Shown here in pieces: positions 1,036 to 60,309 of a stretch of DNA of 64,000 bases. Position 1 is the stretch's first letter; each line of letters opens with the position of its first letter. The stretch comes from Forficula auricularia (Eukaryota > Arthropoda > Insecta > Dermaptera > Forficulidae). A program made the position numbers and the translations under genes. The stretch is taken from positions 313,282-377,281 of the forward strand of contig JALMQS010000091.1 in assembly GCA_024734495.1 (NCBI GenBank), written 5' to 3'. A model generated the notes under the pieces. That model was not told where the DNA came from, did not search any database, and saw nothing but the letters and a program-made list of their open reading frames with translations.

Positions 1036-1114
1036 AAACACTACAAAATAAGTTAATAGAGTAAAGGGTATGTAGTTTCACAGTGAATGAAATGAAACTC
1101 AAAGAGGTTTATAC

Positions 1115-1157
1115 AAACTCAATATATTTCGGATTATTAGTCCATCATCAGGAGTTT
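1115..1157 (-). ncRNA. Hammerhead ribozyme motif, canonical core
   Basis: Reads on the minus strand as the mirror copy of 1181-1223: stem I AAACTC/GAGTTT, core CTGATGA, stem II GGA...TCC, GAAA, palindromic stem III ATATAT, cleavage base U. All core bases required by the hammerhead consensus are present. Activity is inferred only. Confidence 0.65.
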
Positions 1158-1180
1158 ACAGGTTAAAAACTTTAACCTGT

Positions 1181-1223
1181 AAACTCCTGATGATGGACTA
1201 ATAATCCGAAATATATTGAGTTT
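1181..1223 (+). ncRNA. Hammerhead ribozyme motif, canonical core
   Basis: Stem I 5' strand AAACTC (1181-1186), core CTGATGA (1187-1193), one unpaired base, stem II GGA...TCC, GAAA (1208-1211), stem III ATATAT, predicted cleavage after U1217, stem I 3' strand GAGTTT (1218-1223), 6 of 6 pairs. The short palindromic stem III is the form known from Penelope-like elements, thought to work as dimers. Confidence 0.65.
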
Positions 1224-1371
1224 GTATAAACCTCTTTGAGTTTTATTTCATTCACTGTGAAACTACACACCTTTACTCTATTAACTAACATCATGTTTCA
1301 CCTAAAACCTACACCACTTTCCATAAGTAAAAAAAACTACAAAATAACGTTGTTTTTTTATTTTAAAAAAT

Positions 1372-2634
1372 CAGCATACAAAATTTGGTTGAGTTTGGTA
1401 CAAGGGCCTAGATTTTCATTTTTTGACCATACACCCCACCCCCCCTTCATTCTGGGCGGTTAGTTTTTCCATTTTTAGACTTCTGGGGGTCCACTAATTA
1501 TGTATACAAAATTTGGTTGAGTTTGGTAAATGGTCAAGATTTTCATTTTTTGACCCCCCCTCCACTCCCCTTAATTTTCGGTCGATATGAACCAAAATCT
1601 AATCAGCTCTTAATCTCAATGGACCAAAACTACGTGTGAAATTTGGTTTCGATATTCAAACTAGTTTTTGAGCTAGTGTTGTGCCGTCGAGAATTTTTCC
1701 CTTAAATATAAATATATTTATTCTAAAGGGTAATATTTTGGCGGCCGGCTTCCCCTTTTGATCCTCGAATGTGACCATTTAACAATGGGTATGGGATTTT
1801 ACAACTTCCTGAACGTAAATGTCAAAAGGCTCTTAACGCATGTCGATTGCAAAAGTCATTTTTGCGTGGGAAATTTCTAGAAATGGGAGGGCTCAATGAT
1901 TTTGAGATACGCCCCGCTAATTAAGAATATGGCCTATGAGAAGTAATTTTAAAATTTCGACTCTTCAGGCAGGTTTGAGTCAGTCAGAGAGTTGGCAGTT
2001 CTAAGCTGAAGCCCACTTGGGGTGGTCAGTTGTCAATTGGAGTTGAGAGACGAGTTTTAAGCTCTCCAGCCATCAGCATGGAGAAATGTAAATTTATAAA
2101 ATAACTAATAAAAAAACCAATATTAAATAATACTCTTTCTTTAAATACATCTCTCCTACTTCAATTACCATCAAATCAGCATCAGGGCTGAAACAGGTCG
2201 AATCGCTTGGGCGCGTTACCAAGACCTTTCTGTGGAGACCTTCTTCGAGATAAATCTACAAATCGTCAACCTTTCTCTGGTCAAGAAGGGTTGCAACCAA
2301 AACTCTAAAGTGTTGTCGTAACACTAGCTCGTCCACAAAAATTTGGTAACGAATAGACTAACGGACACCCATTCGGACAACCAGACAGACAGACTAACTA
2401 CTAATAGACATTTTGACAAAACAATTATTATCTCGAAAAATATAATTTTTTCGATAGTCACTTATTAGAGTTTTTTTGCAGAGCGAAATGCAATGGTTTC
2501 ACTCAATTTTTTTAATCAAAATAGTTTCAGCCGTTTTTGAGATATTTCAAAAAAAAAAGAAGGAAAAAAAACACTTTTTTCATGCAGGATTACAATACTT
2601 GATCATACCCTGTATGTTAAAGTAAAAAAAATAA
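1372..2634 (+). repeat. Dispersed repeat A, copy interrupted by a solo LTR
   Basis: Partial copy of the G/C-run repeat described at 11938-12652. It begins inside the tandem AAATTTGGTTGAGTTTGG units and ends at CCTGTATGTTAAAGTA. Bases 1677-2323 are an insertion; the repeat resumes exactly at 2324. Confidence 0.75.
1677..2323. mobile_element. Solo LTR with CTAG target duplication
   Basis: A 647-bp insertion into repeat A. It starts TGTTGTGCCG and ends GTCGTAACA (TG...CA), and is flanked on both sides by CTAG (1673-1676 and 2324-2327), which occurs once in uninterrupted copies of repeat A. A short terminal inverted TGTT...AACA and a 4-bp duplication fit a Ty3-type solo LTR. No internal coding region remains, and orientation is unclear. 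Confidence 0.65.
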
Positions 2635-2639
2635 GAGCC

Positions 2640-3400
2640 ATTTCTTGAGAATATATATCTTCAAAAAGTTATATAATAATTAATAATAAAAAAAATTCTA
2701 GTTAATTCATGATTCAGAATATTTTTTCTAGTTGATTCAATCAATCTGCGGTATTTTGTCAATTAAAGCCCGTTCAATTAATTGAATTGTGTGTCCATCT
2801 ATCTATCTATTTGTGGTGCGCTATTTAAGGAAAACAATTTTGTTGAATCTAAATATAAATTTGATAGCTGCTGCTGCAAGTCAAGGATTGTCACCAATCC
2901 AATAGAGACCATTCAGCCAATCATTCATTTCTTGCTTGGACATTAGTACTACACAACACAACACAACAAGGCTACAGCTTAGTCAATCAACTAGAAGGGA
3001 AATAATTAAGCGAGATAAAATTCATAGAAAATTAATCAATTATATGCTATGGTGTTCCGTATCACAACGATAAACCATGAACATGGAATAGGGCAATTTA
3101 AGAGGGTCCAGAACTTAAAAATTGTTTTAAATAAAATTCTCATAGTTTTCGAATTATAGGCATTTTTTTGAAAACGGTGAAAATCGCCACCCTGCCCTAA
3201 ATAATGAGATACAGTGGCTACAGATTTTAATATTTTATTATTCTAATTTTTGTTACGAAATCCTGAATAATCCTGCTATTGAACAGAATTCAAAATAAAA
3301 CCATAAGTACTATACTTTTAGAGAAAAAAGTATTTTTGCTGGACTTATGTTTTAAAAAATTTTGATCAGCTAACTTTGAATCATCTTTAATGTTTAATAA
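2640..3400. other. AT-rich unassigned region
   Basis: No coding signal. Contains a short ATCT run near 2790-2810 and, around 3040-3200, text of the type GTGTTCCGTATCACAACGAT that resembles decayed termini seen at 11593 and 19375. The 3290-3505 minus ORF crosses repeat A and is not a gene. Confidence 0.4.
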
Positions 3401-3409
3401 ATAAATTGA

Positions 3410-6512: not shown

Positions 6513-6843
6513 GCTATCAAAGTAAATAGGTATACTATAATAGTTTATAAAATAGAACATTTAAAAAATGTCCTTATTACCCCCGATTCATTGTTACCCC
6601 ATTTGGAGTAATTTACCCCGGTTCCCCGACCGCTGCTCTAAAGCCTCTAATTAAGATTAGTGGAAGAATAATTTGTTTATAGTTAATAATTTGACCATCT
6701 GGTTTATTTATTAATTATTATATAACTAAAAGACAAACAATGTATTGTTTTAATTGAAAAGTTTTTGTTTTGCCGAGAGTAGCAGAGTTGTTGATTCACA
6801 AAGAGAAACAAAGAGGTTTTCCTCTGCTTGACTCTGTAGACCA

Positions 6844-7551
6844 ATGTCACTTAAACATGCAGCCTTCCATTCAATGATACATAGACTAATAAATATACCT
6901 CTATCAGAAAAAGCATACTCACAAGAATTAGAGACAATTAAAGAAATCGCGGTAAATAATGGGTACGAAGCAAGCCTTATAGACCAAATGTTAAATAAAA
7001 AAATTGAAAAATTAACACTGGAATCAGTATATTCACAAAAGAATGAAAAAGAAAAAGAAAATCCTAGAATAGTTCTCCCATATTATGGACAAATTTCGGA
7101 AAAATTAAAACAAAAAATGAAAAAATTAGGGTTCAAAACAGTATTCAAAACTCCAATTACTCTAGGAAAAGATTTAGGTTCAAATAAAAAAGACAAATTA
7201 CCAAATATAGAAAAAGAAGGGGTTTATAGTTTGAAATGCAAAGATTGCGAAGCAATATATGTAGGGAAGACAGAGAGAAATCTGAAAATTCGATTAAATC
7301 AACATATAAGAGATTTTAAAAATAAAAAATGCGAAAATTCTTTTGCAGAACATTTAAATTCAATCAATCACTCTTTCCCAGGAGGAACCGGTATTAGATT
7401 AATAAAAGGAGAAAAGAACCCAAAATTAATTAGCGCAATCGAATCTTTAAAAATTTTGAAATCATTCAATAGAAATTCAAAACTCTGTTTGAACAATCAA
7501 ATAGAGTTATCCAATAGTAATCTGCTTAAGATGTTTGCTAACAAAAGATAA
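6844..7551 (+). CDS. Penelope-like RT C-terminus with GIY-YIG endonuclease (truncated, open frame)
   Basis: 235 codons, uninterrupted. Residues 1-60 (KHAAFHSMIHRLINIPLS, IKEIAVNNGY) match the thumb/C-terminal part of Penelope-like RTs. Residues 126-221 form a GIY-YIG nuclease: GVY at 126-128, YVG at 139-141, Arg150 in the helix, and a candidate catalytic Glu at 200 (SAIES). CKDC (132-135) with His170 and His176 fits the zinc-binding pattern seen in animal Penelope-like enzymes. The first ATG is used; TGA is in frame at 6829-6831. The missing 450 or more residues of RT make it non-autonomous. It could still supply nuclease, but that is inference. Confidence 0.8.
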   Translation: MSLKHAAFHSMIHRLINIPLSEKAYSQELETIKEIAVNNGYEASLIDQMLNKKIEKLTLESVYSQKNEKEKENPRIVLPYYGQISEKLKQKMKKLGFKTVFKTPITLGKDLGSNKKDKLPNIEKEGVYSLKCKDCEAIYVGKTERNLKIRLNQHIRDFKNKKCENSFAEHLNSINHSFPGGTGIRLIKGEKNPKLISAIESLKILKSFNRNSKLCLNNQIELSNSNLLKMFANKR

Positions 7552-7731
7552 AAGAAAAAAGAAAAACCCTTCTTTTGTCAGCCTTTCTAAGGAGAAAGGA
7601 GAAAGGGAAACATATTGTTATATTTGAATGTGAACCGGATGGAATGTCTTTATTAGTTCCTAGCCAGCAGTGACGAAGGGACACAATCCATATGATATTG
7701 ACTCCATGAAAAACATTTATAATTGAAGAAA

Positions 7732-7770
7732 GACTGATGATGAAGACCAATTCTTCGAAACTATAGTCTC
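7732..7770 (+). ncRNA. Hammerhead ribozyme motif of the Penelope-like element
   Basis: Core CTGATGA (7734-7740), one base, stem II GAAG...CTTC, GAAA (7757-7760), stem III palindrome ACTATAGT, cleavage base C7768. Stem I next to the core is weak (GA/TC), with a further possible helix ATTTAT/ATAAAT outside. It lies about 180 nt after the GIY-YIG stop codon, the position expected for a Penelope-like terminal-repeat hammerhead. Confidence 0.65.
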
Positions 7771-7874
7771 AAACAAATAAATAATATATATACAGATATA
7801 TCATCTCGATATATATATGTGTGTATGTTTATTTGCATCAAGCAGAGGACAACCTCTTTGTTTCTCTTTGTGAA

Positions 7875-8177
7875 TGTATTGTTTATTTATAAACTAATGT
7901 GTTTATTTATTTAAATTACTTAGTAGATGTTTACATTTAATCTTTGATGTTCTCCATGGCTTTAATTATTATTAAAGAAGAAACTCCACCTTTGAAAAAA
8001 ACTTTACCCAAGAAAACAAAGATAATACAACGAATATGTAAGATATTTCTATCATATTTTCATATAAAAATTTATTTATCTATTAAACAGCGAGCCACCG
8101 GGTGCCATTTCTCTACTAAATTTAATTTTTCATCATTTTCTGAAATTTTTAATCTTTTGAACTTCCTTTATTTTGGA
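7875..8177. other. AT-rich spacer, no gene seen
   Basis: Between the Penelope-like element and the hAT-type MITE. Weak ORFs have no recognisable domain. Confidence 0.4.
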
Positions 8178-8872: not shown

Positions 8873-9573
8873 TAACCGACTTCAAAAAAGGAGGAGGTTC
8901 TCTATTCGACTGAATTTTTTTTTTTTTTTTTGTGCCTATGTTACCTCATATCTCCGCCAATTGACAACCGATTTTGAAATTTTTTTTGCATTGGGTCCAG
9001 TCTAGCTTCCGATTGGTTCCATTTTTTCGTTTTTTTCATAGGTATTAGACCTTTTTTATTAGGTTTGTTTAGACCTAACCTCTTTGTTTATGAACCGATT
9101 TCGATGGTTCTTTTTTTATTGGAAAGGGGTGTCTTAGGGATGGTGTCATATTAATTTGGTCAAGTTCTGATGATATGATCACTATTAATAACATCACTAA
9201 AAAGAGAAAAGAAAATAATTTTTAAGAAAATAATAAAACCGACTTCAAAAATAAATGCAACAAATAAAATACACTAAAAGGTATAAAAATAATTATTATC
9301 TTATTTAGTTACAACTAAACGACGAAATATTAACATGAAATTACTTTTTGAAGTCGGTGCCAAACATATACCTTTTATGAATGGCACTCGACGGATCTTA
9401 CTTAGTACCTTTGGCGGGTACGCTCGCTTATATGTATAGTTTGTTTGGCACCGACTTCAAAAAGTAATTTCATGTTAATATTTCGTAGTTTAGTTGTAAC
9501 TAAATAAGATAATAATTATTTTATACCTTTTAGTGTATTTTATTTGTTGCATTTAATTTTTTGAAGTCGGTTT
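8873..9573. mobile_element. Repeat B, foldback element with ACCGACTTCAAAAA termini
   Basis: Starts ACCGACTTCAAAAAAGGAGG. Bases 9236-9573 form a foldback: long arms joined by an approximately 100-bp centre (GGTGCCAAAC...GTTTGGCACC), each arm ending in the GACTTCAAAAA motif. Related copies at 23668-24935 and 56332-56930 show the same order of parts, so it is a defined family. No ORF. Confidence 0.7.
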
Positions 9574-10165
9574 GTATTTTTTTCTTAAAAATTATTGAAT
9601 ATGTGATTGTCTTATCCGTTTCGGTTAGGATTCGGCTCTGTTAGGAGACTTCGACTTCAGGCGGCTGGATTTTAAGCAATTTAGGATTTTATCAAAAACA
9701 GTTCTAACATTTTTTTAAATTGGTGTACTTACTTATCAAGTGTCATTAGTTGTTAGTCCTGTATACATTTTAATCCGATTGAAATAAAGGGAGAGGGTGT
9801 AAATTAGGAGTGATGCCGCAAATTCATTATTTTAATCTTTCATATCTCGTATACGGTAAGCGGGATTTGAAACTTAAGCTATCGAGAGGCTAGAAGAAGT
9901 ACTTCAAGATTTTGGCTAAAATCGAAGAACAGGAAGTTGATGTTTACTTGAAGATTTCAGCAATTTCGTCTTTTTTCCGGTTTTCTCAATTTGAATGAAG
10001 AAAATTGGCATGATGATTTCCAATAAGGGAGAAACTAATGTCAAAGTTGTGTGGTGCACAGACCGGTTGATTTTTTCCTTTCATTCATAACAACCCCCTC
10101 AATAATTTTGAACCCGCCTTATTAAAATTAAAATCTGGTCCCCATGGTGTATGTTTATTTACATC
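9574..10165. other. Unassigned, mostly unique AT-rich sequence
   Basis: Includes TCATATCTCGTATACGG near 9838, also seen near 21880 in variant form, so a decayed dispersed repeat may be present. No gene seen. Confidence 0.35.
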
Positions 10166-18708: not shown

Positions 18709-18862
18709 GACTCAGCAGACTCCAATAGCTTCAACCAGCAGTAGTCTCGCGATATATATCTTGTTTAAAAAGTGTGATAAAAACAAATCTCGTTAATTAA
18801 GTTGATATCGATGAGGCAGTCCAAAAAAAGAAGAGGATGATGTACACTATCTTTTTATTTAT

Positions 18863-18904
18863 AAAACCGACGTTTCGGAGGGTATTCCTCCTTCTTCAGG
18901 TTTT
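18863..18904 (-). ncRNA. Hammerhead ribozyme motif
   Basis: Minus strand: AAAAC, core CTGAAGA, A, stem II GGAGG...CCTCC (5 bp), GAAA, stem III ACGT, cleavage base C, then GGTTTT. Core intact. Stem I is one C shorter than in the 26.9-kb copy, leaving one G bulged. Confidence 0.6.
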
Positions 18905-19116
18905 GAAAAGTCGGTGAAGTCAATGCGACATTCTCTCTGTCTCCTCTTTCAGTGGAAGTAAAAATAATATATTATATTTCATTCTCAGCAGAATTATCAA
19001 TTATATACTACACTATAATGTCTGCTGAGAATGATATATACAATATATTATTGTTGCTGCCACTGAAAGAGGAGACAGAGGGGAATGTCGCATTGGATTT
19101 CCTTCACTGACTTTTC

Positions 19117-19160
19117 AAAGCCCTGAAGAGGAAGGGAATAGCCTCCGAAACGTCGTTTTT
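19117..19160 (+). ncRNA. Hammerhead ribozyme motif, stem II weakened
   Basis: AAAGCC, core CTGAAGA (19123-19129), stem II of imperfect complementarity because GGAGG has become GGAAGG, GAAA (19147-19150), CGTC, GTTTTT. Core intact, helices degraded. Confidence 0.5.
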
Positions 19161-19411
19161 ATCAATAAAAAGATAGTGTAAATTTTTTTTTAGACTGCCT
19201 CATCGATATCCCACTTAATTCACTTATCAGTCCGTCTCCAAAAATTACTCCAATCTTAATTCTCGTTAATATGTTAATTATTATTTGATATATTAATGAG
19301 AAAATTATAAATTTATGAGACTTTTTTAAAAGTAAACTGACCTATCTCTGTTTATCGTTGAGTTATGGGACATCCTGTATAGAGGTGTTAAGAGAGATTG
19401 AGAGATCTAGC

Positions 19412-20670: not shown

Positions 20671-20851
20671 AAAAAAGGTAAAAAGGTCGATTTTTAATCG
20701 AAGCCAAAATGAAATTTAATTTATATTTATCCCAACGTTTTTATCAGCTATGGTCATCATCAAGACGTGTATCACTGGCTACAAAGTTTTGATTGTAATT
20801 GCAATTAAAAATAATATTAAAATACAAAGATGGTCTTTCTTTGACCATTTT

Positions 20852-20894
20852 AAATCCTGAAGAAGGAGGGACGATCCTTCGAATTGTCGGATTT
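20852..20894 (+). ncRNA. Hammerhead-like motif, GAAU variant
   Basis: AAATC, core CTGAAGA (20857-20863), stem II GGAGG...CCTTC, then GAATTGTC instead of GAAACGTC, then GGATTT. The same variant is seen at 21774 (minus) and 57605, so it was in their common ancestor. The change removes the A15.1-U16.1 pair; activity is doubtful. Confidence 0.45.
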
Positions 20895-21414
20895 TTTAAG
20901 AGAATGAAATTGATATTCTAATAAATTATTCTATATAGAAAAATACCTTTAATTAATTAAATTGGTAAATTATAATATATATCAATATTTGTAATGATCT
21001 ATTTGTGGAATTTAAGATAAAAAAACAATTAATTTTATTAAAATAAAATTGTAAAAAATGTAATTATAAATTTTTATTCAAACAGCCACCTGTAAATAAT
21101 TATTTATTTAACAAAAACCCATCAAAAACAACTTAGCCGAATTTATCGCCCGGAGAATTTACCACTGCTCGAAGCCTTTAAAAAAACTTAATAAATTGGA
21201 TTGTATCTAACTTTCTGAGATTTGGCTCGTGATCCCGGCTTCTTTCCTTCTACTCTGTTCTTTTCACGATGGAGGGGCCATCCCATACAGGCCTTTAGGG
21301 CAGAGGTTGGGGAACTTTTTTAGTTATTACCCCAAAATATTTTTCCATAGGTCGCTATTTCCCCTACATGAAAAGCAAAAAAAAGCATGGTAAATGTATT
21401 ATATTAAACGAGCA

Positions 21415-21835
21415 ATTCTTGTATATATATTTAGAATCGGTTTGTCGAAAAAGGGCTCTAACGATTTGGATGAAATTCACGGGTTAGGCGGGTTTTTGTG
21501 TTGACAATTCGATCTATCAAGGTCTCATCTTCGGATAAGTTGTTTTTGATGGGTTTTTTGTTAATTGAAATAATTATTCACAGGTGGTTGTTGGAATAAA
21601 ATTTATAATTGCATTTCTTTCAATTTATTTTTAATAAAATTATTTGGTTTTTTATTTTAAATTGCACTAATAGATCATTACAAATGTTATTATATATTAG
21701 AATTTGCCAATTTGATTAAATAAAGGTATTTTTCTATAAAATAATTTAATAGAATATCAATTTTATTCTCTTAAAAATCCGATAATTCGAAGGATCATAC
21801 CTCCTTCTTCAGGATTTAAAAGGGTCAAAATAAGG
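21415..21835 (-). mobile_element. Ribozyme-bearing TIR element, partial, minus strand
   Basis: Same order of parts as 57600-57960 read on the minus strand: hammerhead-like motif (21774-21818), CACCTGTGAATAATTA-type segment near 21575, and the second motif CGAAGATGAGACCTTGATAG-GAATTGTC at about 21507-21545. Both termini are lost. Confidence 0.55.
21774..21818 (-). ncRNA. Hammerhead-like motif, GAAU variant
   Basis: Minus strand: AAATC, CTGAAGA, GGAGG...CCTTC, GAATTATC, GGATTT. Same variant as 20852 with one further change (G to A at 16.2). Confidence 0.45.
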
Positions 21836-23545: not shown

Positions 23546-23667
23546 GGGGTCGACTTTGGTTTTCAAATTTTTTTTTTGATGTTAAAAGTGTAAATTCTAA
23601 AAACTCATAATATTTAAATTTAAATAAATGCATTTTTGAGCTTTCAAAAATAATATTTAAGAAAAAA

Positions 23668-26515: not shown

Positions 26516-26665
26516 AGAGTCATGTAGCTTTTGATATTTGTTTTATCTAAAAATTCCCTCTAATAAGATTGGAGTAATTTATGAAGACGGACTGATAAGT
26601 GTATTAAGTGGATATCGATGAGGCAGTCCAAAGAAGAAGATAATTTACACAATCTTTTTATTCAT

Positions 26666-26705
26666 AAAACCGACATTTCGGAGGCTATCCTCCTTTCAGG
26701 GTTTG
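26666..26705 (-). ncRNA. Hammerhead motif, broken by 2-nt loss
   Basis: Minus strand reads CTGAAAGGAGG where the intact copy has CTGAAGAAGGAGG, removing G8 and A9 of the core. The rest (CCTCC, GAAATGTC, GGTTTT) is preserved. Confidence 0.45.
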
Positions 26706-26892
26706 AAAATCAGTGAAGGAAATCCAATGCGACATTCCTCTCTGTCTCTTCTTTCAGTAGCAGTAACAATAATATCAGCAGAATTATAATGAAGTAATTC
26801 TGCTGAGATTGAAATACAAGATATTATTGTTACTGCTACTGAAAGAGGAGACTGAGGGGAATGTCGCATTGGATTTCCTTCACTGACTTTTC

Positions 26893-26936
26893 AAAACCCT
26901 GAAGAAGGAGGGAATAGCCTCCGAAATGTCGGTTTT
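26893..26936 (+). ncRNA. Hammerhead ribozyme motif, best canonical copy
   Basis: Stem I AAAACC (26893-26898) pairs with GGTTTT (26931-26936), 6 of 6. Core CTGAAGA (26899-26905), A, stem II GGAGG...CCTCC (5 bp), GAAA (26923-26926), stem III A-TG-T with one wobble, cleavage base C26930. Every conserved hammerhead position is present. Confidence 0.7.
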
Positions 26937-27147
26937 ATGAATAAAAAGATTGTGTAAATTATCTTCTTCTTTTTTTTGGACTGCCTCATCGATATCAACT
27001 TAATTCCCTCTAATGTTTCGGCTATTGGTTATTAAGACCGCAAGAATTTGGAAGATAAAAACGTTTGTTTTTTTTTAATTCAAATTTTAAATAGGTAAAA
27101 CAAAGAAATAACTTTAAAAACATGGTTTCATTTAAATAATATATATT

Positions 27148-29511: not shown

Positions 29512-30151
29512 CGCCCAAACTGGGGGGCCGTCTGACGTCACCGGCCAAAATACTGCAGTAACACCCTTCTATACAAAAATAAATCCAAATGGATGGGAAT
29601 CAAATTGGAAAACAACATGTTCTGGAAAAATTAAAATCAATCTATTTTCTTTTTGATAGAATAAAACGAGAGAGCTTATTAATACATCTAGCGATCCATT
29701 TTCATTTGAATAAGCATAATTTGCAAATACAGGGTGGGGCATAAAGATCTACCACATTTTGAAGAGGTATAAAAAATGAAAAAATTTAACTAGAAAAAAA
29801 CTGAATTTATTTTTGAAAAGAATATAAAATATTTTTTTTTTTTTTTAATATGTTTTCAACATTAGGTATATCAGACGAAAAAAAGGTGTAGGGGGGTCAA
29901 AAATGAAAATTCTAGCTCTTTCAACCAAACTCAAACAAATTTTGTATACATATTCTGTGGACAACCAGAAGGCTTGAAATTCAAAAACTAACACTCCGAA
30001 ATGGAGGAGGGGTCAAGTCCTTTTGACCAAATTATATATACAACATTTGGTTAGTTTTTGCATTTCAATCCTTCTGGGGGTCCACAGAATATGTATACAA
30101 AATTTAAAATTTAGGGAACGCGGTGTTGGTTTATAGTGAAACATTGTTAAA

Positions 30152-30342
30152 ATTAAATTAGGTTGGAGTTGGTGGTGTTTCACAAGGAGAAAAATTAAAA
30201 TACAAAGTTTTTTAGTTTACTTTGACGTCAATGTTCTCCTGAAGATGAGTTAAGAGCTCGAAATATATAGAGTAAACTAAAAAAATCTTTGTATTTTAAT
30301 TTTTCTCCTTGTGAAACACCACCAACTCCAACCTAATTTAAT
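30152..30342. mobile_element. Foldback element with central hammerhead
   Basis: Arms 30152-30207 and 30287-30342 are inverse complements with essentially no differences. The loop holds a single hammerhead motif on the + strand. Same architecture as 16442-16652 and 46808-47314. Confidence 0.75.
30213..30278 (+). ncRNA. Hammerhead ribozyme motif
   Basis: Core CTGAAGA (30239-30245), one base, stem II GAG...CTC, GAAA (30260-30263), stem III ATATAT, cleavage base A30269. Stem I CTC/GAG beside the core continues, across an internal loop, into AGTTTAC/GTAAACT and then the foldback arms, so stem I can be very long. Confidence 0.6.
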
Positions 30343-30679
30343 TTTATACAAAATTTGGTTGAGTTTGGTAACAAGGGCTAGAATTTTCATTTTTGACCCT
30401 CCCCTCTATTTTGGGTGGTTAGTTTTTGCATTTATAGCCTTTTTGGGGCCCACAGAATATGTATACAAAATTTGGTTGAGTTTGGTCGAAAGGCCTAGAA
30501 TTTTAATTTTTGACAAATTTTTGAAAAATTTATTTTATGTTTAAAATTTGAATTTTTATTTAAATAAAACATGTTTTATGTTCTTTTCATAAATATGTTC
30601 AGTTTTTTTTTCTAGTTAAATTTTTTCATTTTTTTTATACCTCTTCAAAATATAGTAGATCTTTATGTCCCCACCCTGT

Positions 30680-31250: not shown

Positions 31251-31254
31251 GTGT

Positions 31255-32280: not shown

Positions 32281-32325
32281 CTGAAAAAAGAGGGTCGATC
32301 CTTCGAAACGACGGTTTTTTTAAGA
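32281..32325 (+). ncRNA. Decayed hammerhead-like motif
   Basis: CTGAAAA (core G8 lost), AGAGGG...CCTTC, GAAACGAC, GGTTTT. Related to the 57605 family, including the following TTTAAGAATATG. Inactive by inspection. Confidence 0.4.
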
Positions 32326-32671
32326 ATATGCAAATGACGTTCTAATAAATTCTTTTATTCTGAATTTATAGTTTTCATTATTTTTGAGAAGCCCCTTCAT
32401 CAATTCAACTTCATTTAATTCTATCAATACTACCACTTCATCTTCAATAGAAAATAGCACTAATTAATTATGTTTTTAAAATTAATTAACAATTTATTGA
32501 ACCAGTCATCTAATTAATTGAATTTCATAATTTTAATAAAATCTAATATTTGCAATTAACTACTAGCGGGATTTAAAATAAATAAAAAACAAAACAATTA
32601 ATTAAAAAACGAAATTTGAAAAAAGTAATTAGTGTCTCCTGGTGGAATTATAGATTTTTCATTATTTATAA

Positions 32672-32836: not shown

Positions 32837-33138
32837 TAAATAAATTAAAAATTTATGATTCCACCAGAAGACACTTTTAGTGTCCCTTCAATTTATAAAA
32901 AAAAGTCTTCTACTCTCGGCAAATACTTTCAATTTAAAGTAATTAGTTATTATATTCATTTTTATTGACACACCCACCCGTGAATAATTGCTTTAATTAA
33001 TAAAAAAACAATCAAATTAAAGTTATTTGAAGATGAGACCCTGATTACCCCAAAAACCCATTAAGCGGTGATTTTTATCGAAATTTTTCGAGCAGGTTTC
33101 GAGAAATCGATTCTATAATCGCTCATTTAATAGAAAAA

Positions 33139-34699: not shown

Positions 34700-34743
34700 T
34701 CCACTGAGGAAGAGATGCCGAAAGCGCTCTCGAAATATTTGGA
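34700..34743 (+). ncRNA. Hammerhead ribozyme motif in the sense strand of the intron before exon 2
   Basis: Stem I TCCA/TGGA (34700-34703, 34740-34743), core CTGAGGA (34704-34710), A, stem II GAGA...TCTC (4 bp), GAAA (34732-34735), stem III A-TA-T, cleavage base T34739. All consensus core bases present. It lies 213 nt before exon 2 in the gene's transcribed direction, so it should be in the pre-mRNA if the first exon lies upstream. No inverted partner seen nearby. Confidence 0.6.
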
Positions 34744-38000: not shown

Positions 38001-41000
38001 TTAATAGATTAAAAAATAATCAAGAATTTATTTTAAAATATATTTCTCATAAGCACTTCTCAATTTTCTGAAAAAACAACACATTTTGATAGGTTTTATT
38101 TATTAACAATTGGATGAATAAAAATGAATCATATGGTTGAATCAAAACAGGTGCAGGAGGTGGGAGTGCAGTGGTGGGGGACCGGGGGTGGGGTCGAGTG
38201 GGGTGGAGGTGGGGGGGGGATACAGTGGGCGAATATTATATATTTTTGTATTTTTTTTTAATTTGAAAACGACTCTCAAATAAAAATCGACCTTTTTATC
38301 AGAATTTTAAATTAAAAATAATATTAAAATAAACATTTTAACTGAAGGAAGAAGTTACCGAGCATCGCTCGGTGCCTCAAATTACTTAATATTAAAACAT
38401 GTACTTACTTTGTTTCAGGTTTAGGATTTCGGCCCATGCCCTCTGAGGATAACGTCGAAAGTACACTCATCTGGTATAGAGGCAGCGATGATAATAATCA
38501 TAAATACTGGACTGAAGAACTGGACAAATTTCTTGAACGTAAGCATCTGAAAAAAAAGAATGATTTTAAAAAATTGATCTAAAATTTGAAAATTAAATAA
38601 TTATTGATTAAGGGTGTCCAATTGACCCGACATAAAATCATAAACATTGAGATTCTTATGTACTTACTGGAAAACGTATCTGAGATAAAAGAGCTAACTT
38701 TTCTAAATTAAATTTAACCTACCCGAATATACATATATTAGCTAGACTTATAGAAGAAGCTGATTTTTAATAATGAATTTGAAACTATAGAAATCAAGAT
38801 TTACAGAAAGATAATAATTATATTAGAAGAAATTATCTCTTGGGTGAGAGAGACGGAATGGTAGAAATTTTAATTGAGAATTGATAGAAAGGCAGTCCAA
38901 GGACAATGAAAAAATAATAGATTTATTGGACAGTCATTTTTTGTCCTACTCATAAACAGACGTTTCGGAGGATTCTTCAGGATTCTTGTATGTTTCCCTC
39001 AGTGACCCCTTTTAAACTCTGAAGAAGGAGGGAAAATCCTCCGAAACCACGGTTTATGAGTAGGGAGGGAAATGACTGTCCAATAAATATATTTTATTTG
39101 AGATAATTTTTTTCATTATCCTTGGACTCCCTTTGCATCAATTGTCAATTGATAATAATTAAACAATAGTAGGTACTTTATTCCATTACTTTCTTAGTTT
39201 TTTCTAAATATCTTGAAAATGACTTAACCAATTTTGATGAAATTTAATATTCTAATTAAATACCTTTGGGGCCAGGAAAAAGGTTAAAGTTTTTAGTAAA
39301 TTTATATTTTAAAGTACTTTACTCTAGAGTAGGATAGTACTTTTTTAAATTCTTTAAAATTTATTCATTTGATCGTTTTAATATAGCTCATTTAACCTTG
39401 CTTATGTAAGAATGGATAGGCTTCTCTCTGTACAATGCTAAAAATTTGAGACGAAATTTTATAAGTAACCATAGCAACTGCGTTGTTTTCTTATCCGTTA
39501 CCTTTGCTTAAGACATAGAGGAATCAACATAAAATCAAAAATAGGGATTATTGATTCTCATCTATTAATTGAGGAATAACCATTCATGATTGAATTTTTG
39601 ACGTTTCGGTTATTATTGGTAACCATTCCTGAAGAGTAAGTCAATATATGGACTGCAAATAGCCAGTGATATCTGATTAATAATAATGGAATAAACATAA
39701 TAATATTTCAAATGACTTTGGATAAAGTTTAGCAACGATCCGTAGCAATTTATTTTTTTCGTTATTATAGGTTCATTTTTCTTATTTTTTTAGTTTGAAA
39801 ATTTTATAATTTTAATTTTTTACCCCCCCCCCTTAATTTTGGGTCGATATGCACCATATAATAAAGTTTAACAACGATCCGTTGAAGTTTATTTATTATT
39901 TAAAAATCTATCTTCATAACATAATTTTATTTTTATTTTATTTTATTTTATATCAGTAGACGGACAAAAGTGTCTTTATACATAACAATACAAGTACAAA
40001 ATAAATTTACAAAAATATAAGCTGATACGTTAATCATAATATAAACATACAAGAAATACAAAAATATAAGGTGATACATTAGTCTTAATACAAACATACA
40101 CAAATTTCGAAAATAAAAGGTGACACCCCAATCACAATACAAACACACACATGATCCAGAAAGAGAGTGCAAAAAAACAGAATAACAACAATCACAAGTA
40201 CAAAACGGAAATTGAACATTGACAGACCGCAAGCAAGATATCGCCAATCACAGGCAATTCGATTACTCAAAACAGATAGTATGGAAATATTTATGTAATT
40301 TAATAGATAGATTATGTATTTTAATAGTTATATGTGTCACAAAAATAGTAAAAAATCCATTACTTAATCAATAGAACAATTGGTTAATTTTAAACTAGAC
40401 TAATTCCATCATAAAGTATTAATGTCATAGTACGAGACAATACAAAAATTCAAAATGATGTTTATACAATTTCTTTTATAGAAAAAACTTATTTTTCAAT
40501 TTAAAATGACTAATACATTTTTATAAATTGTATGTATTGCGTGACAATAAAATAAGCTATAAATTATTTATACGATAAAGGATAAACTAAAGCGGCGATA
40601 AACTTCTAGCGATTAATTGTTGGTGATAACTTTCCTAGACATGAAAATTATTTTCCGTTGTATTTTGTAAATAACAAATTGATAAATAAAACCAGCCACC
40701 CTGAAGATATATTTCTAAATGGTAGGCAGGGAGATAAGGAGTGAGCATATGGCTAGAAAAGTGTCGCCTGCCTACGTCATCGCTGACTCACAATCCGCCA
40801 TCTTGAGGCGATCAACAAATTGAGATTTCCATATGGTCCTATACTAAAATATATATATAATTTTACCTTCGATTTTCAAAATTATAAGGTCTCCTAAATA
40901 AAAGAAAAACTAATAAAAGAACTATCTTAAATTATAGTTTTTTGATTTTTACAGATATCTAGAGTAAATTGAAATTAAAATGAGCAAATAGAAATTTTTT

Positions 41001-44000
41001 TATTTGATGAAAAAATATTCTTAAAAATTCAAAACATTCTTAATTAAAGCGGTATAAATTATTGTACTAACAAAAATAGAAATAAAAACTCCTCGAATAA
41101 AGTACGTATTTATATATATATTAGACTGGTCGTTAAAAATTTAATTTTTTCCGATGCCCCCTAAAATGCTTCCTTTTGATGAGAACACGCGAGGTATTTT
41201 TTTCTTTTTTATTAAACACAAAACGTTTCGCAAGACGATCTAAGTGCATTTTTTGGTAAAATCATGTTTTTTTTTTTTGGAAATTTTTTATCACAAATAG
41301 TATTTTTCCTGAAATATAATATAATAATATAGTCAATGATTTGTATAGTACAACTAAGAGAAATTTTCGCTATACGCGACATATTTTTTATAGAAGCCTA
41401 TAGACGTATGAAAGGATCGGTAATTTAATAAATATAGATAATGATTATACATTAACCTGCTAAGTTACTGGGAAATTGTTGGGAAAATAATGATAATAAT
41501 AATGTAACATTGTTAATATTATCCAAATTATCAAAAAATTATTATTATTGGTTATAAAATAAAAATATTCCAAAAAAAAAACAAAAAACATGATTTTACC
41601 AAAAAATAAACTTAGTTTATGAAATTTTCCTTCTTTATAAAAGCTTGAAAAAAATTCACTTTAAAAATATTAGTTCAATGCACATGTTTTAATTGAAAAA
41701 GTTTTTGTTTTGCAGAGAGTAGCAGAGTTGTTGATTCACAAAGAAAAAGTTAGACTTGATGCAAATAAACATACACACATGTATATCGAGATGATATATA
41801 TATATATATATATACAGATATATCATCTCGATATACATGTGTGTATGTTTATTTGCATCAAGCAGAGGACAACCTCTTTGTTTCTCTTTGTGCACATGTT
41901 TTACTAGAAATAAATAATTTGTTTAGAAAATACCTGTTTAAAAGTAAAAATAAAAAAGTCTGTTAACCTCAAAACACATGTCAAAACAACTTTAGAATAC
42001 TCACTTATTAAGTTAAAAAATATAAAATTATTTCACATTAAAATGAGATGAATATACACAAAATAGTCCTAGGAACATATACTGTATTTTATATTAAAGA
42101 AAAGCGTGCTTATATGAGAGTATTAGCTCTTTGTTAAACATGTATTTCTCATTTGATAACGTTGTGTTTGGAAATCTTTTGATCAAGACAAGATGGCGGT
42201 CGAGCCTCCTCTTCTCCCCGCTTCGGGGGACAATTTCCTCGCCTAAGTTCTAAGCTTACAGGCACTCACTATCTCCATGATGGTAGTTAAGGTAATAATT
42301 TTGTATGTTGTTTGTTTAGCGTACCGGCGTCGTGGTGAGGACGTAGTTGGGTCAGCGAATCGCCAGCACTGTGACTACGAGTCCCCCCCAAGCGAAGGGA
42401 AAGTTTGCGAAATTGATATTTCCTCCTACAACCCTTGCACAACCGATAATCATTACAATTATCAAAAGAGTGCGCCTTGTATCTTTCTGAAATTGAACAA
42501 GATTTTCAATTGGAAACCGCATTTTTATAATGATACAAATACCTTGCCGGAAGGAATGCCCGAAGATCTCAAGACTCATATTCGAAACGAGAAAAATAAC
42601 CATGCTAGCAGGGTAAGGGAACTCAATCACTTCAAACATATTTATTTATTTATTTGTTTTCTCAAATAGCTTTAATAAGAAGAATAAAAATCATTTCTCT
42701 AAATAAAGAATTATATAGGCAGTTTATGGTATTTTAATACAAGCTGTGAAGTCCGCCTTCGGCGGACAAGGTGGGCATCTTGCTGGCCAGGGGGTTACGC
42801 CGTTACCCTCTCTGGACTCCATGGTGGGCTTTAAAATAATAATTTAAATTCCCTACTTTTAATCAATTTTATTTGTCATGAACTATATTAGTGGGTTTTA
42901 AAATAATAATTTAAATTTCCTAATTTTAATCAATTTTATTTGTCATGAACTATATTAGTGGGTTTTAAAATAATAATTTAAATTTTCTAATTTTAATCAA
43001 TTTTATCTGTTGTCATGAACTATATTAGTGGGTTTTAAAATAATAATTTAAATTTTCTAATTTTAATCAATTTTATTTGTCATGAACTATATTAGTGGGT
43101 TTTAAAATAATAATTTAAATTTGCTAATTTTAATAAATTTTATTTGTCATGAACTATATTAGTGGCTTTTAAAATAATAATTTAAATTTACTAATTTTAA
43201 TAAATTTTATTTGTCATGAACTATATTAGTGGGTTTTAAAATAATGATTTAAATTTTCTAATTTTAATCAATTTTATTTGTCATGAACTATATTAGTGGG
43301 TTTTAAAATAATAATTTAAATTTTCTAATTTTAATCAATTTTATTTGTCATGAACTATATTAGTGGGTTTTAAAATAATAATTTAAATTTTCTAATAATC
43401 AATTTTATTTGTCATGAACTATATTAGTGGGTTTTAAAATAATAATTTAAATTTTCTAATTTTAATCAATTTTATTTGTCATGAACTATATTAGTGGGTT
43501 TTAAAATAATAATTTAAATTTTCTAATTTTAATCAATTTTATTTGTCATGAACTATATTAGTGGGTTTTAAAATAATAATTTAAATTTTCTAATTTTAAT
43601 CAATTTTATTTGTCATGAACTATATTAGTGGGTTTTAAAATAATAATTTAAATTTTCTAATAATCAATTTTATTTGTCATGAACTATATTAGTGGGTTTT
43701 AAAATAATAATTTAAATTTTCTAATTTTAATCAATTTTATTTGTCATGAACTATATTAGTGGGTTTTAAAATAATAATTTAAATTTTCTAATTTTAATCA
43801 ATTTTATTTGTCATGAACTATATTAGTGGGTTTTAAAATAATAATTTAAATTTTCTAATTTTAATCAATTTTATTTGTCATGAACTATATTAGTGGGTTT
43901 TAAAATAATAATTTAAATTTTCTAATTTTAATCAATTTTATTTGTCATGAACTATATTAGTGGGTTTTAAAATAATAATTTAAATTTTCTAATTTTAATC

Positions 44001-56040: not shown

Positions 56041-56331
56041 AATCAAGATAAAAAGTCATAGAGAACCAGAGCCCCTGAGGACGCCAATGGATAAAATCTT
56101 AATTTTTTATAATATTATTTATTTACTTATTTTTTATAAGAGTAATAAGTAATGAGAGTGTAGACTAGTAGAGAGAGAGTCGACCTTGGAATATAGGAAA
56201 AGTTGAGTTCATTTTCATCATTGATGATGTGGACATATTCAATGAGCTTTTCGCTCTTAGAAACGGCTCTATTCCACAGTACTATCTATAGGATTTAATT
56301 AAAAAAAAAAAAAAATTATAAGAAAAAAATA
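56041..56331. other. No feature seen
   Basis: AT-rich spacer between repeat A and repeat B. Confidence 0.4.
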
Positions 56332-56930
56332 AAAACCGACTTCAAAAAAATTAAATGCAACAAATAAAATACACTAAAAGGTATAAAATAATTATTATCT
56401 TATTAAGTTACAACTAAACTACGAAATATTAACATGAAATTACTTTTTGAAGTCGGTGCAAAACATATACCTTTTATGAATCGCACTCGACGGATCTTAC
56501 TTAGTACGTTTGGCGGGTAGGCTCGCTTATAGATATAGTTTGTTTGGCACCGACTTCAAAAAGTAATTTTATGTTAATATTTCATCGTTTAGTTGTAACT
56601 AAATAAGATAATAATTATTTTTATACCTTTTAGTGTATTTTATTTGTTGCATTTAATTTTTTTGAAGTCGGTTTTATTTTTTTCTTAAAAATTATTTTTC
56701 TTTTTCTCTTTTTAGTGATGTTATTAATAGTGATCATATCATCAGAACTTGACCAAATTAATATGACACCATCCCTAAGACACCCCCTTTCGGATAAAAA
56801 AAGAATCATCGAAATCGGTTCATAAACAAAGAAGTTAGTCCTGAACAAACCTAACAAAAAATGTCTAATACCTATGAAAAAAATGGGACCAATCGGAAAC
56901 TAGACTGAACCCAATGCAAATTTTATAGTA
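56332..56930. mobile_element. Repeat B, third copy
   Basis: Foldback 56332-56682 with ACCGACTTCAAAAA ends and GGCACCGACTTCAAAAAG in the right arm, followed by the second part up to AACCCAATGCAAATTT, where it is truncated. Confidence 0.7.
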
Positions 56931-57935: not shown

Positions 57936-58129
57936 TATTTTTTATTGAATATTTAATTATTAAAAATAATATTAATATATAATACTTTGAACTAAAGCAA
58001 AAAATTACTGAGCAACGCTCGGTGTTCCGGGTACTAGGATATCTAATCGAAAAGTTAAAAATTCAATGTAAATTTCACGTCCAGATCGTACTGAGTAACA
58101 AGTGAATAAAAAAAAGTAAAAAAAAAACC

Positions 58130-58692
58130 TGATTAATCCTTTCCCCGGTGAGCCAAGGCCTTTGAGCTTAAAACTACCTCTCGAATTTTATTCAGGAAGC
58201 ATCGTATTGATTTCACAAAAAATATCAGTTTGCTGTTAATCTATTAAAACAAAGAATACATGAGAAATGTAGAAGAAAAATTCCCAACAAAACTAGCAGG
58301 TATTTAAGTTACATATAAATTACCCATCATTTTTTATTTTAATTATTTTTGAAGTTTAATATTTGTTCACATTCAAAATATTTAATTAATTTGATGATAC
58401 TGAACCAAATTGAAATTATTATTTATTATTATTATCATTTATTTATTTATTTTATTTAAATCCTTCGTTTGTGCTTTAACTATTTTGGTACCTGGAAATG
58501 CAGATACGCCAACTGGTGGTTAAGTTTTGAACTAGAACAATTGGGTTGGCTGACTAAATGACATATATGCAAAAACCAATGTTTATTTATTCCTTGATTG
58601 AATAATGACATTTGTGAAAAAACCCCTGAATAATCGTTTCCCCGGTGAGCCAAGGCCTTTGAGCTTAAAACTACCTCTCGAATTTTATTCGG
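58130..58692 (+). repeat. Repeat C, further copies, second one split by a hAT element
   Basis: 58130-58345 carries CCGGTGAGCCAAGGCC, AATACATGAGAAATGTAGA. 58463-58692 begins CCTTCGTTTGTGCTTTAAC, and its continuation is at 60142-60310 (GTATTGATTTCACAAAAAAT). Confidence 0.65.
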
Positions 58693-58908
58693 GAAACATG
58701 CAGGGACGGATTTCCCACTAGGCACACTAGGCCAGTGCCTAGAGGCGGCACGGCCCTACGGCATAATTACAAAATTTTATAATAAAGAAATTTTAAAAAA
58801 TAATTTTTTTATTCATTTTTATGTAATTTTATTCCTATTTTAAAAGTAAGAAAAAAAGACTCGTTATTTAAATTGTGCAGTAAAAATTAGTGTTTAATTT
58901 TGTTTATA

Positions 58909-59208
58909 TATCATCATCATCATCATTGAGTATACAGTCCTAAGACTGGTTTGATGCAACAATCCGTCTCCACTGACTTCCTGTCCCCCGCCAGCTGTTT
59001 AACCTCTCTAAATGTCTGGCATCCCATATCCCCAATTATTTGGTTGAAATATTCTAATCTGGGGTCTTCCCTCTTCCCTTTTCTTTCCCACCTCCCCCTC
59101 CAAGATATCCCTGGGCAGTCCCCCATGTCTCAGTGTGTGTGCCCCATCATCTGACCTCTTCTCTTCCTCAGACTCCTCCACAAGGTTCTTTTTTCTCCGA
59201 TTCTTTTT
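58909..59208 (-). pseudogene. RTE-like LINE 3' fragment
   Basis: Same 3' end as 10166 and 15703, with (ATG)n tail, then RLEYFNQIIGDMGCQTFREV and KQLAGDR. Shorter 5' truncation. Confidence 0.75.
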
Positions 59209-59385
59209 ATTTCAAAAAAGATTAAAACTATTTTGATAAAAAAAAAAAAAATAGGCAAAAACACCAATTTTTTCCTTCCGATTATTTAGATTTTAATTTT
59301 CTTTATTTTCTTTGAAAGACGGACTGTTAAGCGAAATAAAAGTGGGTTATAATGAAAGCCAGACCATAAATTATTTACTTTTATT

Positions 59386-59434
59386 CAATTTCCGACGTTT
59401 CGGAGACTTTTTCTTCTCCTTCTTCAGGGTATTG
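59386..59434 (-). ncRNA. Hammerhead ribozyme motif, canonical core
   Basis: Minus strand: stem I CAAT..CC/GG..ATTG with a small internal loop, core CTGAAGA, A, stem II GGAGA...TCTCC (5 bp), GAAA, stem III ACGT, cleavage base C. Confidence 0.65.
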
Positions 59435-59567
59435 AATAGTTATTGATGGGTGAGTATAACTTGGTTCCCATTTGTCTCTCCTTTCAGTGATAGAAACAAT
59501 ATTACAACTTGTAATTTACAAGAGAGACAAATGGGAACCAAGTTATACTCACCCATCAACAACTATT

Positions 59568-59616
59568 CAATACCCTGAAGAAGGAGAGGAAAAAGTCTCC
59601 GAAACGTCGGAAATTG
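59568..59616 (+). ncRNA. Hammerhead ribozyme motif, canonical core
   Basis: Mirror of 59386-59434: CTGAAGA (59575-59581), GGAGA...TCTCC, GAAACGTC, stem I CC/GG plus CAAT/ATTG. The two arms differ at only one or two stem II loop positions, so both copies are near-intact. Confidence 0.65.
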
Positions 59617-60309
59617 AATAAAAGTAAATAATTTATGGGCTGGCTTTCATTATAACCCACTTTTATTTCGCTTAACAGTCCGTCTTTCTAAGAAAATAAA
59701 GAATTATAACCTACTTATTTAGATTTTAAAATTCTTTAAAATTCCAAAATGTTTATAATAAATGTTTTTTTTTTTTTTTTTTTATAAATTTTATTAAACC
59801 AATTATTTTACATTAATTAATGTATACATTGTATTTTTGCTTCGATTCCGGAGATTACTTCTCCACCATCGATTGTCCTTATTCATCTTTAGTCCTTATT
59901 TTTAATAAGAGGAAAAATCTAAATAGATAAAAAAACCTCTTTTCCGATAATTATTTCAATTCCATTATTCCCCAATCAAGTCGATTGGTTTTAATCCTCA
60001 TCTCATTTCCTCTCCATAATAAATGTATACATTTTTTTATTTAAATAATGACTTTGGCAGAGATGTGACATGTTTCAAGGGGGCGGTAGTCAGAATAGTG
60101 CCTAGGGGCCAAATATTTATAAATCCGTCTCTGGAAACATGGTATTGATTTCACAAAAAATATCAGTTTGGTGTTAATCCATTAAAACAAAGAATACATG
60201 AGAAATGTACAAGAAAAATTCACAACAAGTATAGTAGATATCTAATAAATTACCCATCATTTTTTATTTTAATTATTTTTCAAGTGTAAAGCGCTTGTTC
60301 ACATTCAAA

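What the first reader, a model, noticed from the sequence alone, without database searches (positions are those of the whole stretch)
1036..59700. A population of hammerhead-ribozyme foldback elements
Reading both strands for CTGANGA - stem II - GAAA - short palindrome - cleavage site gives about 17 motif instances, nearly all inside inverted-repeat elements at 1.1, 16.5, 18.9, 26.7, 30.2, 32.7, 38.9, 46.9 and 59.4 kb. Seen: core, stems and their repeated placement. Known: Penelope-like elements carry minimal type I hammerheads with palindromic stem III. Inferred: these are non-autonomous foldbacks built from Penelope-like terminal repeats, in several sequence families (stem III ACGT, ATATAT, ACTATAGT). 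I know of no description of such a set for this locus.
Basis: partly seen in the sequence, partly recalled or inferred. Interest (0 to 1): 0.9.

Follow-up and report, generated by a model that had tools for sequence, protein, structure and literature searches.

The report
Two-ended Penelope foldbacks with hammerhead-like motifs
This genome holds 17,036 copies of one hammerhead-like RNA motif, many of them in hairpin-shaped repeats that appear to be ends of Penelope-type retrotransposons, and the flanks of those repeats suggest that each was likely made in one event by copying RNA into both broken strands of the target DNA.

Summary
No Rfam hammerhead model matches, even at E 10. The motif nevertheless has the hammerhead layout, with one extra base between A9 and stem II: 8 hits against 0.08 per shuffle, and 0 with normal spacing. 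Genome-wide one such pattern occurs 17,036 times, against 77 with no extra base and 105 with two. Stems I and II covary across nine chosen families. For the ACTATAGT families the motif sits in the pseudo-LTR of an 858-aa RT/GIY-YIG Penelope-like element (PLE), a piece of which lies at 6.7-7.9 kb.

The foldbacks are head-to-head pairs of PLE-like 3' ends. In 30 of 31 scored insertions exactly one arm carries a ~40-nt tail, and duplications of about 8-20 bp bracket the pair. ORF-bearing PLE copies show the same anatomy. I infer two-ended target-primed reverse transcription: each nicked target strand likely primes on sense RNA at a different start site.

Head-to-head pLTRs and tails were known in rotifer PLEs, where antisense self-priming was proposed. 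The one-tail rule, and arm differences at common polymorphisms, argue against that for some copies. Not supported: motifs at 16.5 and 46.9 kb, and a PLE origin for 1.1 and 30.2 kb. Self-cleavage is untested.

The parts
6739..6750 (+). left target-site duplication AATGTATTGTTT of the window's PLE insertion
   Evidence: repeated at 7873-7884
6751..6831 (-). short inverted arm: PLE pseudo-LTR 3' end WITH tail
6832..7551 (+). 3' part of PLE ORF, GIY-YIG endonuclease domain
   Evidence: PF01541 E 1.2e-6; genome copies with open frames of 858 aa and more
7734..7768 (+). hammerhead-like motif, stem III ACTATAGT; predicted cleavage after C7768; this copy has one broken stem II pair
7873..7884 (+). right target-site duplication; right arm ends here WITHOUT tail
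18788..19270 (.). foldback 18.9: TSD TCTCGTTAAT at 18788-18797 and 19261-19270; tail on the right arm only
   Evidence: (by eye)
18869..18899 (-). hammerhead-like motif, left arm of 18.9
19123..19154 (+). hammerhead-like motif, right arm of 18.9 (no extra base in this copy)
26552..27014 (.). foldback 26.7: TSD AATTCCCTCTAAT at 26552-26564 and 27002-27014; tail on the left arm only
   Evidence: (by eye)
26899..26930 (+). hammerhead-like motif, 6-bp stem I, predicted cleavage after C26930
32622..32946 (.). foldback 32.7: TSD AAAGTAATTAG at 32622-32632 and 32936-32946; tail on the right arm, resembling the 858-aa PLE tail; motifs damaged (TTGATGA)
   Evidence: (by eye)
34704..34739 (+). solitary hammerhead-like motif, stem III ATAT
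38810..39161 (.). foldback 38.9: TSD GATAATAATTA at 38810-38820 and 39151-39161; tail on the left arm only; decayed motifs 38980- and 39019+
   Evidence: (by eye)
41679..41903 (.). foldback 41.7, same PLE pLTR truncated before the motif: TSD TGCACATGTTTTA at 41679-41691 and 41891-41903; tail on the left arm only
59282..59729 (.). foldback 59.4: TSD TTATTTAGATTTTAA at 59282-59296 and 59715-59729; this copy has tail sequence on both arms
59394..59427 (-). hammerhead-like motif, left arm of 59.4
59575..59608 (+). hammerhead-like motif, right arm of 59.4
1051..1286 (.). palindrome 1.1 with outward motifs 1151- and 1187+ (stem III ATATAT, 3-bp stem II); no tail or TSD recognised, PLE origin unproven
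30144..30351 (.). palindrome 30.2 with motif 30239+ (stem III ATATAT); no tail or TSD recognised, PLE origin unproven

Best explanation
The foldbacks are head-to-head pairs of what appear to be Penelope-like pseudo-LTR 3' ends, each pair bracketed by a short duplication, and they were likely made by two-ended target-primed reverse transcription of sense PLE RNA. Shown here: both arms point their 3' ends outward, exactly one arm carries a ~40-nt tail in 30 of 31 scored insertions, and words of about 8-20 bp are repeated on the two sides of the pair. Also shown: each arm carries (unless truncated or decayed) a hammerhead-layout motif, nearly always with one extra base after A9, and ORF-bearing PLE copies have the same end layout. 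Inferred: the GIY-YIG enzyme makes a staggered cut. One 3' end primes at the tail start site, the other at the short start site. Two antisense cDNAs run inward, stop early and are joined, with 3-5 bp of inverted microhomology in three of the five PLE junctions read. When both cDNAs stop within the pseudo-LTR, the product is a short ORF-less foldback. Predicted, untested: the motif self-cleaves as a dimer through its loopless palindromic stem III.
For: Motif spacing. Covariation among nine representatives that I chose: 32 of 32 stem II cells in the eight with >=4 bp (permutation P 1.5e-4), 22 of 27 stem I cells (0 of 20,000 permutations) (I also set the stem boundaries). PLE protein: RVT_1 plus GIY-YIG, tandem units with the motif between ORFs. 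Orientation, in two lists capped at 150 hits: 20 distinct divergent ORF pairs, 0 convergent within 12 kb (13 and 11, 4 shared). One tail: 10 of 10 readable ORF pairs by eye (9 by script; C845's tail has a changed base; 3 further pairs unreadable), 14 of 14 fetched foldbacks (13 by script), 6 of 7 window elements. TSD: longest shared word >=10 in 10 of 12 ORF-family insertions vs 0 of 132 mismatched flanks; >=11 in 13 of 14 foldbacks vs 7 of 182. Two templates: 7 of 19 arm differences fall on common polymorphisms, P 8.6e-6 (ten pairs; with the three edited-looking pairs put back it is 8 of 49). Unequal arms and differing centres. PMC11167929 (passages and the main-text section read): a PLE protein cuts and extends both strands and starts internally at two sites that bound the 'tail'.
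Against: Arms differ at 0-1 of ~1 kb in 6 of 13 pairs, while any two of 50 rows differ by a median of 30. So both arms often come from one source locus, and self-copying is not excluded for those; gene conversion could also make the polymorphic differences. Three centre types recur at two loci each. Foldback 59.4 and its paralogue L002 have tail sequence on both arms. The 20857+/21812- pair and C3:855636+/855875- are convergent. C57, C839 and C817 have short, imperfect or filler-separated duplications. 1.1 and 30.2 kb lack tail and TSD. PMC11167929 saw no strand difference in start site, so the one-tail rule needs extra coordination. Rfam finds no hammerhead. ViennaRNA dimers of three motifs favoured one long duplex, not paired stem III hammerheads. 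No RNA evidence was available.
Confidence: 0.72

Rival explanations
1. Self-priming: a PLE RNA or cDNA snaps back on itself (Arkhipova et al. 2013 proposed an antisense template), so one molecule yields both arms and the hairpin is then inserted.
For: Arms are nearly identical in 6 of 13 pairs; inverted microhomology of 3-5 bp in three of five centres; proposed in PMC3846280 (passages and Discussion read).
Against: It does not predict exactly one tail with two fixed 3' ends (30 of 31), nor arm differences at common polymorphisms (7 of 19, P 8.6e-6); snap-back of a target-linked cDNA would copy the same 3' end (my reasoning).
Confidence: 0.13
2. Unit copying: once formed, a foldback is transcribed and its palindromic RNA is reverse transcribed as a whole, so most copies descend from a few masters.
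For: 59.4 family: 40 scored places match across one centre, though several lie inside the same larger repeat; L086/L097, L089/L096 and L095/18.9 share centres; L054 has 10 arm differences all readable as A-to-G on one strand across both arms.
Against: Other centres differ, with unequal arms (L084, L085, L091, L092, L094 among 16 compared; L051-L055). Shared centres could be junction hot spots.
Confidence: 0.09
3. Successive insertion: a second PLE copy inserts into or beside the 5' end of an older one in the opposite orientation.
For: PLEs favour AT-rich targets and the Anolis enzyme cuts at its own ORF-pLTR junction in vitro (PMC11167929).
Against: The duplication brackets the whole pair; all 20 ORF pairs are divergent; one tail per pair.
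Confidence: 0.04
4. The motif is not a ribozyme: it is a conserved binding or priming structure that only resembles a hammerhead (a separate axis from the insertion mechanism, so not part of the same sum).
For: No Rfam match; one extra core base in 17,036 of 17,218 matches of the three spacings; dimer folding uninformative; PMC11167929 found HHR mutants still insert in vitro and cleavage only with protein present.
Against: Core letters, G-C first pair of stem II, A15.1-T16.1, H17 and covarying stems I and II; a related PLE motif does cleave (PMC11167929).
Confidence: 0.25

Closest known systems
Endonuclease-containing Penelope retrotransposons of Adineta vaga (Arkhipova et al. 2013, PMC3846280; passages and Discussion read)
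   Same: Head-to-head inverted pLTRs, a ~31-bp tail on one of them, 8-10 bp TSDs, palindromes at junctions, 5' truncation.
   Different: There a low copy number, tail called optional, antisense self-priming proposed. Here many ORF-less pLTR-like foldbacks, one tail in 30 of 31 scored cases, and the hammerhead motif placed in the arms.
Poseidon PAc of Anolis (Mob DNA 2024, PMC11167929; passages and main-text section read)
   Same: pLTR/ORF-start hammerhead, GIY-YIG plus RT, extension of both target strands, two internal start sites bounding the tail.
   Different: In vitro enzyme work; inverted or foldback genomic products are not discussed in what I read.
PLE minimal hammerheads acting as dimers (Cervera and de la Pena 2014; Lunse et al. 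2017; neither held, known from citations, recall and reviews PMC6155905 and PMC7761336, passages)
   Same: Minimal type I motif lacking helix III, in PLE pLTRs; dimeric cleavage.
   Different: I could not check whether their consensus has the extra base after A9; placement in ORF-less foldbacks not mentioned in the passages read.
Metazoan non-LTR retrozymes (PMC7229834, passages read)
   Same: Short non-coding repeats with type I hammerheads, PLEs suspected as helpers.
   Different: Retrozymes are direct tandem repeats expressed as circles; these are inverted pairs.
PLE structural peculiarities in the TE curation guide (PMC8969392, passages read)
   Same: Mentions inverted pLTRs and short 3' extensions in individual PLE copies.
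   Different: No mechanism, no foldback class, no hammerhead in the passages read.

Membership tests
Penelope-like element (source of the arms) | RT and GIY-YIG endonuclease in one ORF | tested here: met
   857-aa translation from L050: RVT_1 E 2.1e-15, GIY-YIG E 8e-6
Penelope-like element (source of the arms) | Tandem units with pseudo-LTRs | tested here: met
   ~2908-bp spacing in C618
Penelope-like element (source of the arms) | Optional 3' tail and short TSD | tested here: met
Penelope-like element (source of the arms) | ORF linked to the window's GGA-stem ACGT foldbacks | not tested
   anatomy matches but an ORF-bearing copy of these very families was not sought; a different ACGT family is ORF-linked (L074-L077)
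Hammerhead ribozyme, type I | Conserved core CUGANGA ... GAA ... H17 with three stems | tested here: met
   8 vs 0.083 expected, but only with one extra base; stems covary in chosen representatives
Hammerhead ribozyme, type I | Canonical spacing of A9 and stem II | tested here: not met
   0 hits in window with stem II >=4 bp (one, 19123+, at >=3 bp); 77 vs 17,036 in genome
Hammerhead ribozyme, type I | Match to an Rfam hammerhead model | tested here: not met
Hammerhead ribozyme, type I | Self-cleavage | not testable with these tools
   no wet work
MITE or foldback DNA transposon | Both termini identical with a fixed-length TSD | tested here: not met
   termini differ by one tail; shared words of 9-18 bp in 14 foldbacks
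Retrozyme | Direct tandem repeats of ~170-400 nt | tested here: not met
   0 tandem pairs within 700 bp among the first 100 pattern matches

The most novel reading that the evidence does not exclude
Two-ended insertion is the normal, built-in integration mode of Penelope elements: two RNA 3' ends, held together by the loopless palindromic stem III of their hammerheads, are loaded asymmetrically so that one target strand always starts at the tail site and the other at the short site. Foldbacks are then the default product and tandem PLEs the long-template case.
Probability: 0.18. Interest if true: 0.85.

Novelty: new variant of a known kind. Interest (0 to 1): 0.62.

Why it matters
How Penelope elements integrate, and why they are so often inverted, is open. 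A genome with a very large number of small, complete two-ended insertions fixes both ends, the duplication and the junction of each event, so two-ended priming can be tested against self-priming by counting. The constant extra core base and loopless stem III also give a sharp biochemical question about the ribozyme.

Tried and rejected
Rejected: chance; canonical hammerhead; a DNA foldback transposon (unequal ends); the idea that the two arms of a pair always come from different RNAs (one search shows 6 of 13 pairs with 0-1 differences, so I claim it only for some pairs). I first counted L054 and L055 as two-template pairs because their motifs differ; one search showed mostly private, one-directional changes, and I dropped them, with C831, before the count. 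An A-to-G type excess between arms of the window's own foldbacks was looked for and is not clear. Dimer folding gave a long duplex and is uninformative. An alignment-wide pair count was not obtained (error; MAFFT misplaced loops in A1), so covariation was counted in a script on nine representatives that I chose. A search for PLE ORFs of the GGA-stem families was not made. The 28 other loci of the 59.4 family (L002-L029) were not scored for tails in the count of 31, being copies of one family partly inside a larger repeat; by eye L003-L006 have one tail and L002 two (output cut in the middle).
Literature: 8 searches. None listed a paper whose title or abstract start describes ORF-less PLE foldbacks with hammerheads, but the two key papers (Cervera 2014, Lunse 2017) are not held and subscription work is mostly absent. 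I therefore do not claim that it is unpublished.


Full report
WHAT IS THERE. The window is 64 kb of a 1.06 Gb genome in 845 contigs (C827:313282-377281). The closest homologues of its PLE protein that bear an organism name are insect proteins (Parnassius, Diabrotica, Bemisia among the first), so it is likely an arthropod. Rfam gives no hammerhead at the curated threshold or at E<=10, and none in short stretches around single motifs. A layout scan suggests why. With canonical spacing and stem II of at least 4 bp it finds 0 hits (a looser first scan found one, 19123+). With one extra base between A9 and stem II it finds 8, against 0.083 per dinucleotide shuffle (60 shuffles). In the whole genome the pattern CTGANGA-N-GGA...TCC-GAAACGTC occurs 17,036 times. 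Without the extra base it occurs 77 times and with two extra bases 105 times. The reversed control is 0 in all three.

IS IT A HAMMERHEAD LAYOUT? Nine family representatives, chosen by me from instances that show the layout, were compared. In the eight with at least 4 bp all 32 stem II cells pair, counting G-T (permutation P 1.5e-4). The first pair is G-C in 9 of 9. Stem I's first two pairs form in 9 of 9 and change type (A-T, C-G, G-C, T-A, T-G); over three pairs 22 of 27 cells pair, reached by none of 20,000 permutations. I set the stem limits myself, which favours the structure. Stem III is a palindrome without loop in 7 of 9 (ACTATAGT twice, ACGT twice, ATATAT twice, ATAT); 26899 has ATGT and 20857 TTGT. 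A loopless palindrome could hardly close in a monomer (my inference). ViennaRNA folds the 26899 monomer with stems I and II as drawn, but for dimers of three motifs it prefers one long duplex, so folding does not show the stem III dimer.

WHERE IT BELONGS. The ORF at 6832-7551 has a GIY-YIG domain, and a motif stands 183 bp downstream at 7734. In the genome the same element reaches open frames of 858 aa and slightly more, has RVT_1 and GIY-YIG, and forms tandem arrays of ~2.9 kb units with the motif between ORFs. Of 12 further GIY-YIG loci picked from the 150, ten match a loose form of the layout downstream, in three families with different stem II (L074-L077; L079; L078 and L080-L083). L076 has a damaged stem II, L073 a truncated motif and L072 none. 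The class L074-L077 has stem III ACGT.

ANATOMY OF THE FOLDBACKS. Of 150 scored hits of the PLE C-terminus (9,924 candidates, so a capped list), 13 neighbouring pairs within 12 kb are divergent, 9 tandem, 0 convergent. The GIY-YIG search, also capped at 150, gives 11 divergent, 2 tandem, 0 convergent. Four divergent pairs are shared, so there are 20 distinct ones. I fetched the 13. Both outer ends could be read in 10. The other three (C563, C760, C831) run into arrays or were unreadable. In all 10 one arm ends at or just after ...TTTCTCTTTG and the other goes on through the ~40-nt tail ...ACTTTTCA (the script, missing C845 where one tail base differs). The window's own PLE (6751-7872) and the pure foldback at 41692-41890 show the same. 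The longest word shared by left and right flank is >=10 bp in 10 of these 12 insertions and in 0 of 132 mismatched flank pairs. C57 (8) and C817 (9) fall below. C839's 20-bp word is separated from the arm by filler.

THE MOTIF-BEARING, ORF-LESS FOLDBACKS. Of the first 100 pattern matches listed, 15 neighbouring pairs lie within 700 bp: 14 divergent, 1 convergent. I fetched all 14 divergent ones. Each has a tail with a CAGTCCGTCT-like word on one arm only (13 by script, L089's word is damaged and was read by eye), and a flank word of >=11 bp in 13 of 14 against 7 of 182 mismatched pairs. In the window, 18.9, 26.7, 32.7 and 38.9 kb have one tail and 10-13 bp duplications, found by eye and each present exactly twice in the stretch scanned; these four have no control of their own. 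The tail of 32.7 resembles that of the 858-aa PLE. 59.4 is the exception: a 15-bp duplication, but tail sequence on both arms. Its paralogue L002 also has two, while L003-L006 seem to have one (by eye). Summed, exactly one tail in 30 of 31 scored insertions (10 ORF pairs, 14 foldbacks, 7 window elements). If arms chose independently with probability one half this has P 1.5e-8. Paralogues of 59.4 were left out of that count, and 1.1 and 30.2 kb were not scored, as neither tail nor duplication was recognised.

MECHANISM. Both outer ends are PLE 3' ends, so each target strand's 3' end was extended with antisense DNA, as if on sense RNA. The Anolis PLE protein does cut and extend both strands in vitro, starting internally at two sites that bound the tail (PMC11167929, passages and the main-text section read). 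I therefore infer two-ended target-primed reverse transcription, with early stops giving short foldbacks. Junctions in the five ORF pairs read through differ from one another, with unequal arms; three overlap by 3-5 bp, one has a 1-bp gap, and L052 is complex. Among 16 foldbacks compared, several centres are not shared (L084 50+45 for 92 bp; L091 64+133 for 194 bp), and three centre types recur at two loci each. The rotifer paper saw the same head-to-head form and proposed antisense self-priming (PMC3846280). The one-tail rule is not expected from that. In ten pairs 7 of 19 arm differences fall on polymorphisms common among copies (P 8.6e-6; three pairs with edited-looking changes dropped; 8 of 49 with them), which needs two templates or gene conversion. 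Against this, 6 of 13 pairs have arms with 0-1 differences while any two of 50 rows (the window copy counted twice) differ by a median of 30. The templates often come from one locus.

WHAT IS NOT SHOWN. No cleavage, transcription or transposition was observed. The role of the motif in the insertion is unknown; in the Anolis system HHR mutants still inserted (PMC11167929). Whether the extra base is already described could not be checked.

VERDICT. A real and very abundant motif class: known ingredients (PLE, minimal hammerhead, inverted pLTR, tail) in an ORF-less form with a consistent end rule that makes two-ended insertion the best reading.

Noticed in passing
L054, L055, L068 (PLE arms; one search names L054_1441+, L055_2549+, L068_288-): Private changes run mostly in one direction: 9 T>C of 11, 6 A>G of 7, 6 A>G of 11. 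In L054 the ten arm differences all read as A-to-G on one strand across both arms, as expected of A-to-I editing of a hairpin RNA before reverse transcription.
   Followed up: partly
window 20840-21829: A ~300-bp inverted pair with motifs 20857+ and 21812- facing inward, opposite to the other pairs; stem III reads TTGT/TTAT.
   Followed up: no
window 59440-59520 and 26740-26770: Antisense to the motif the arms contain intron-like borders (GTGAGT...TTTCAG, and CTTCTTCAG as the reverse complement of CTGAAGAAG), read by eye.
   Followed up: no
window 31052-32341: Long repetitive open frames (YFQVLSNIS-type repeats) from a tandem array on the - strand.
   Followed up: no
window 9214-9596, 23646-24025, 56301-56705: Three related near-perfect palindromes of ~400 bp sharing ACCGACTTCAA near their ends: another foldback family, with no CTGANGA inside.
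   Followed up: no
window 35386-36998: Inverted repeats of ~185 bp (94%) around an ORF (35641-36129) with weak, below-cut-off matches to transposase HTH domains.
   Followed up: no
L007-L029 flanks: Many 59.4-type foldbacks lie inside a larger repeat with constant flanks, so part of that copy number is passive.
   Followed up: partly
window 41755-41862, 1124-1215, 59437-59565 and other palindromes: Rfam's sub-threshold matches in the window are mostly microRNA hairpin models hitting the foldbacks, a likely artefact of perfect palindromes.
   Followed up: no
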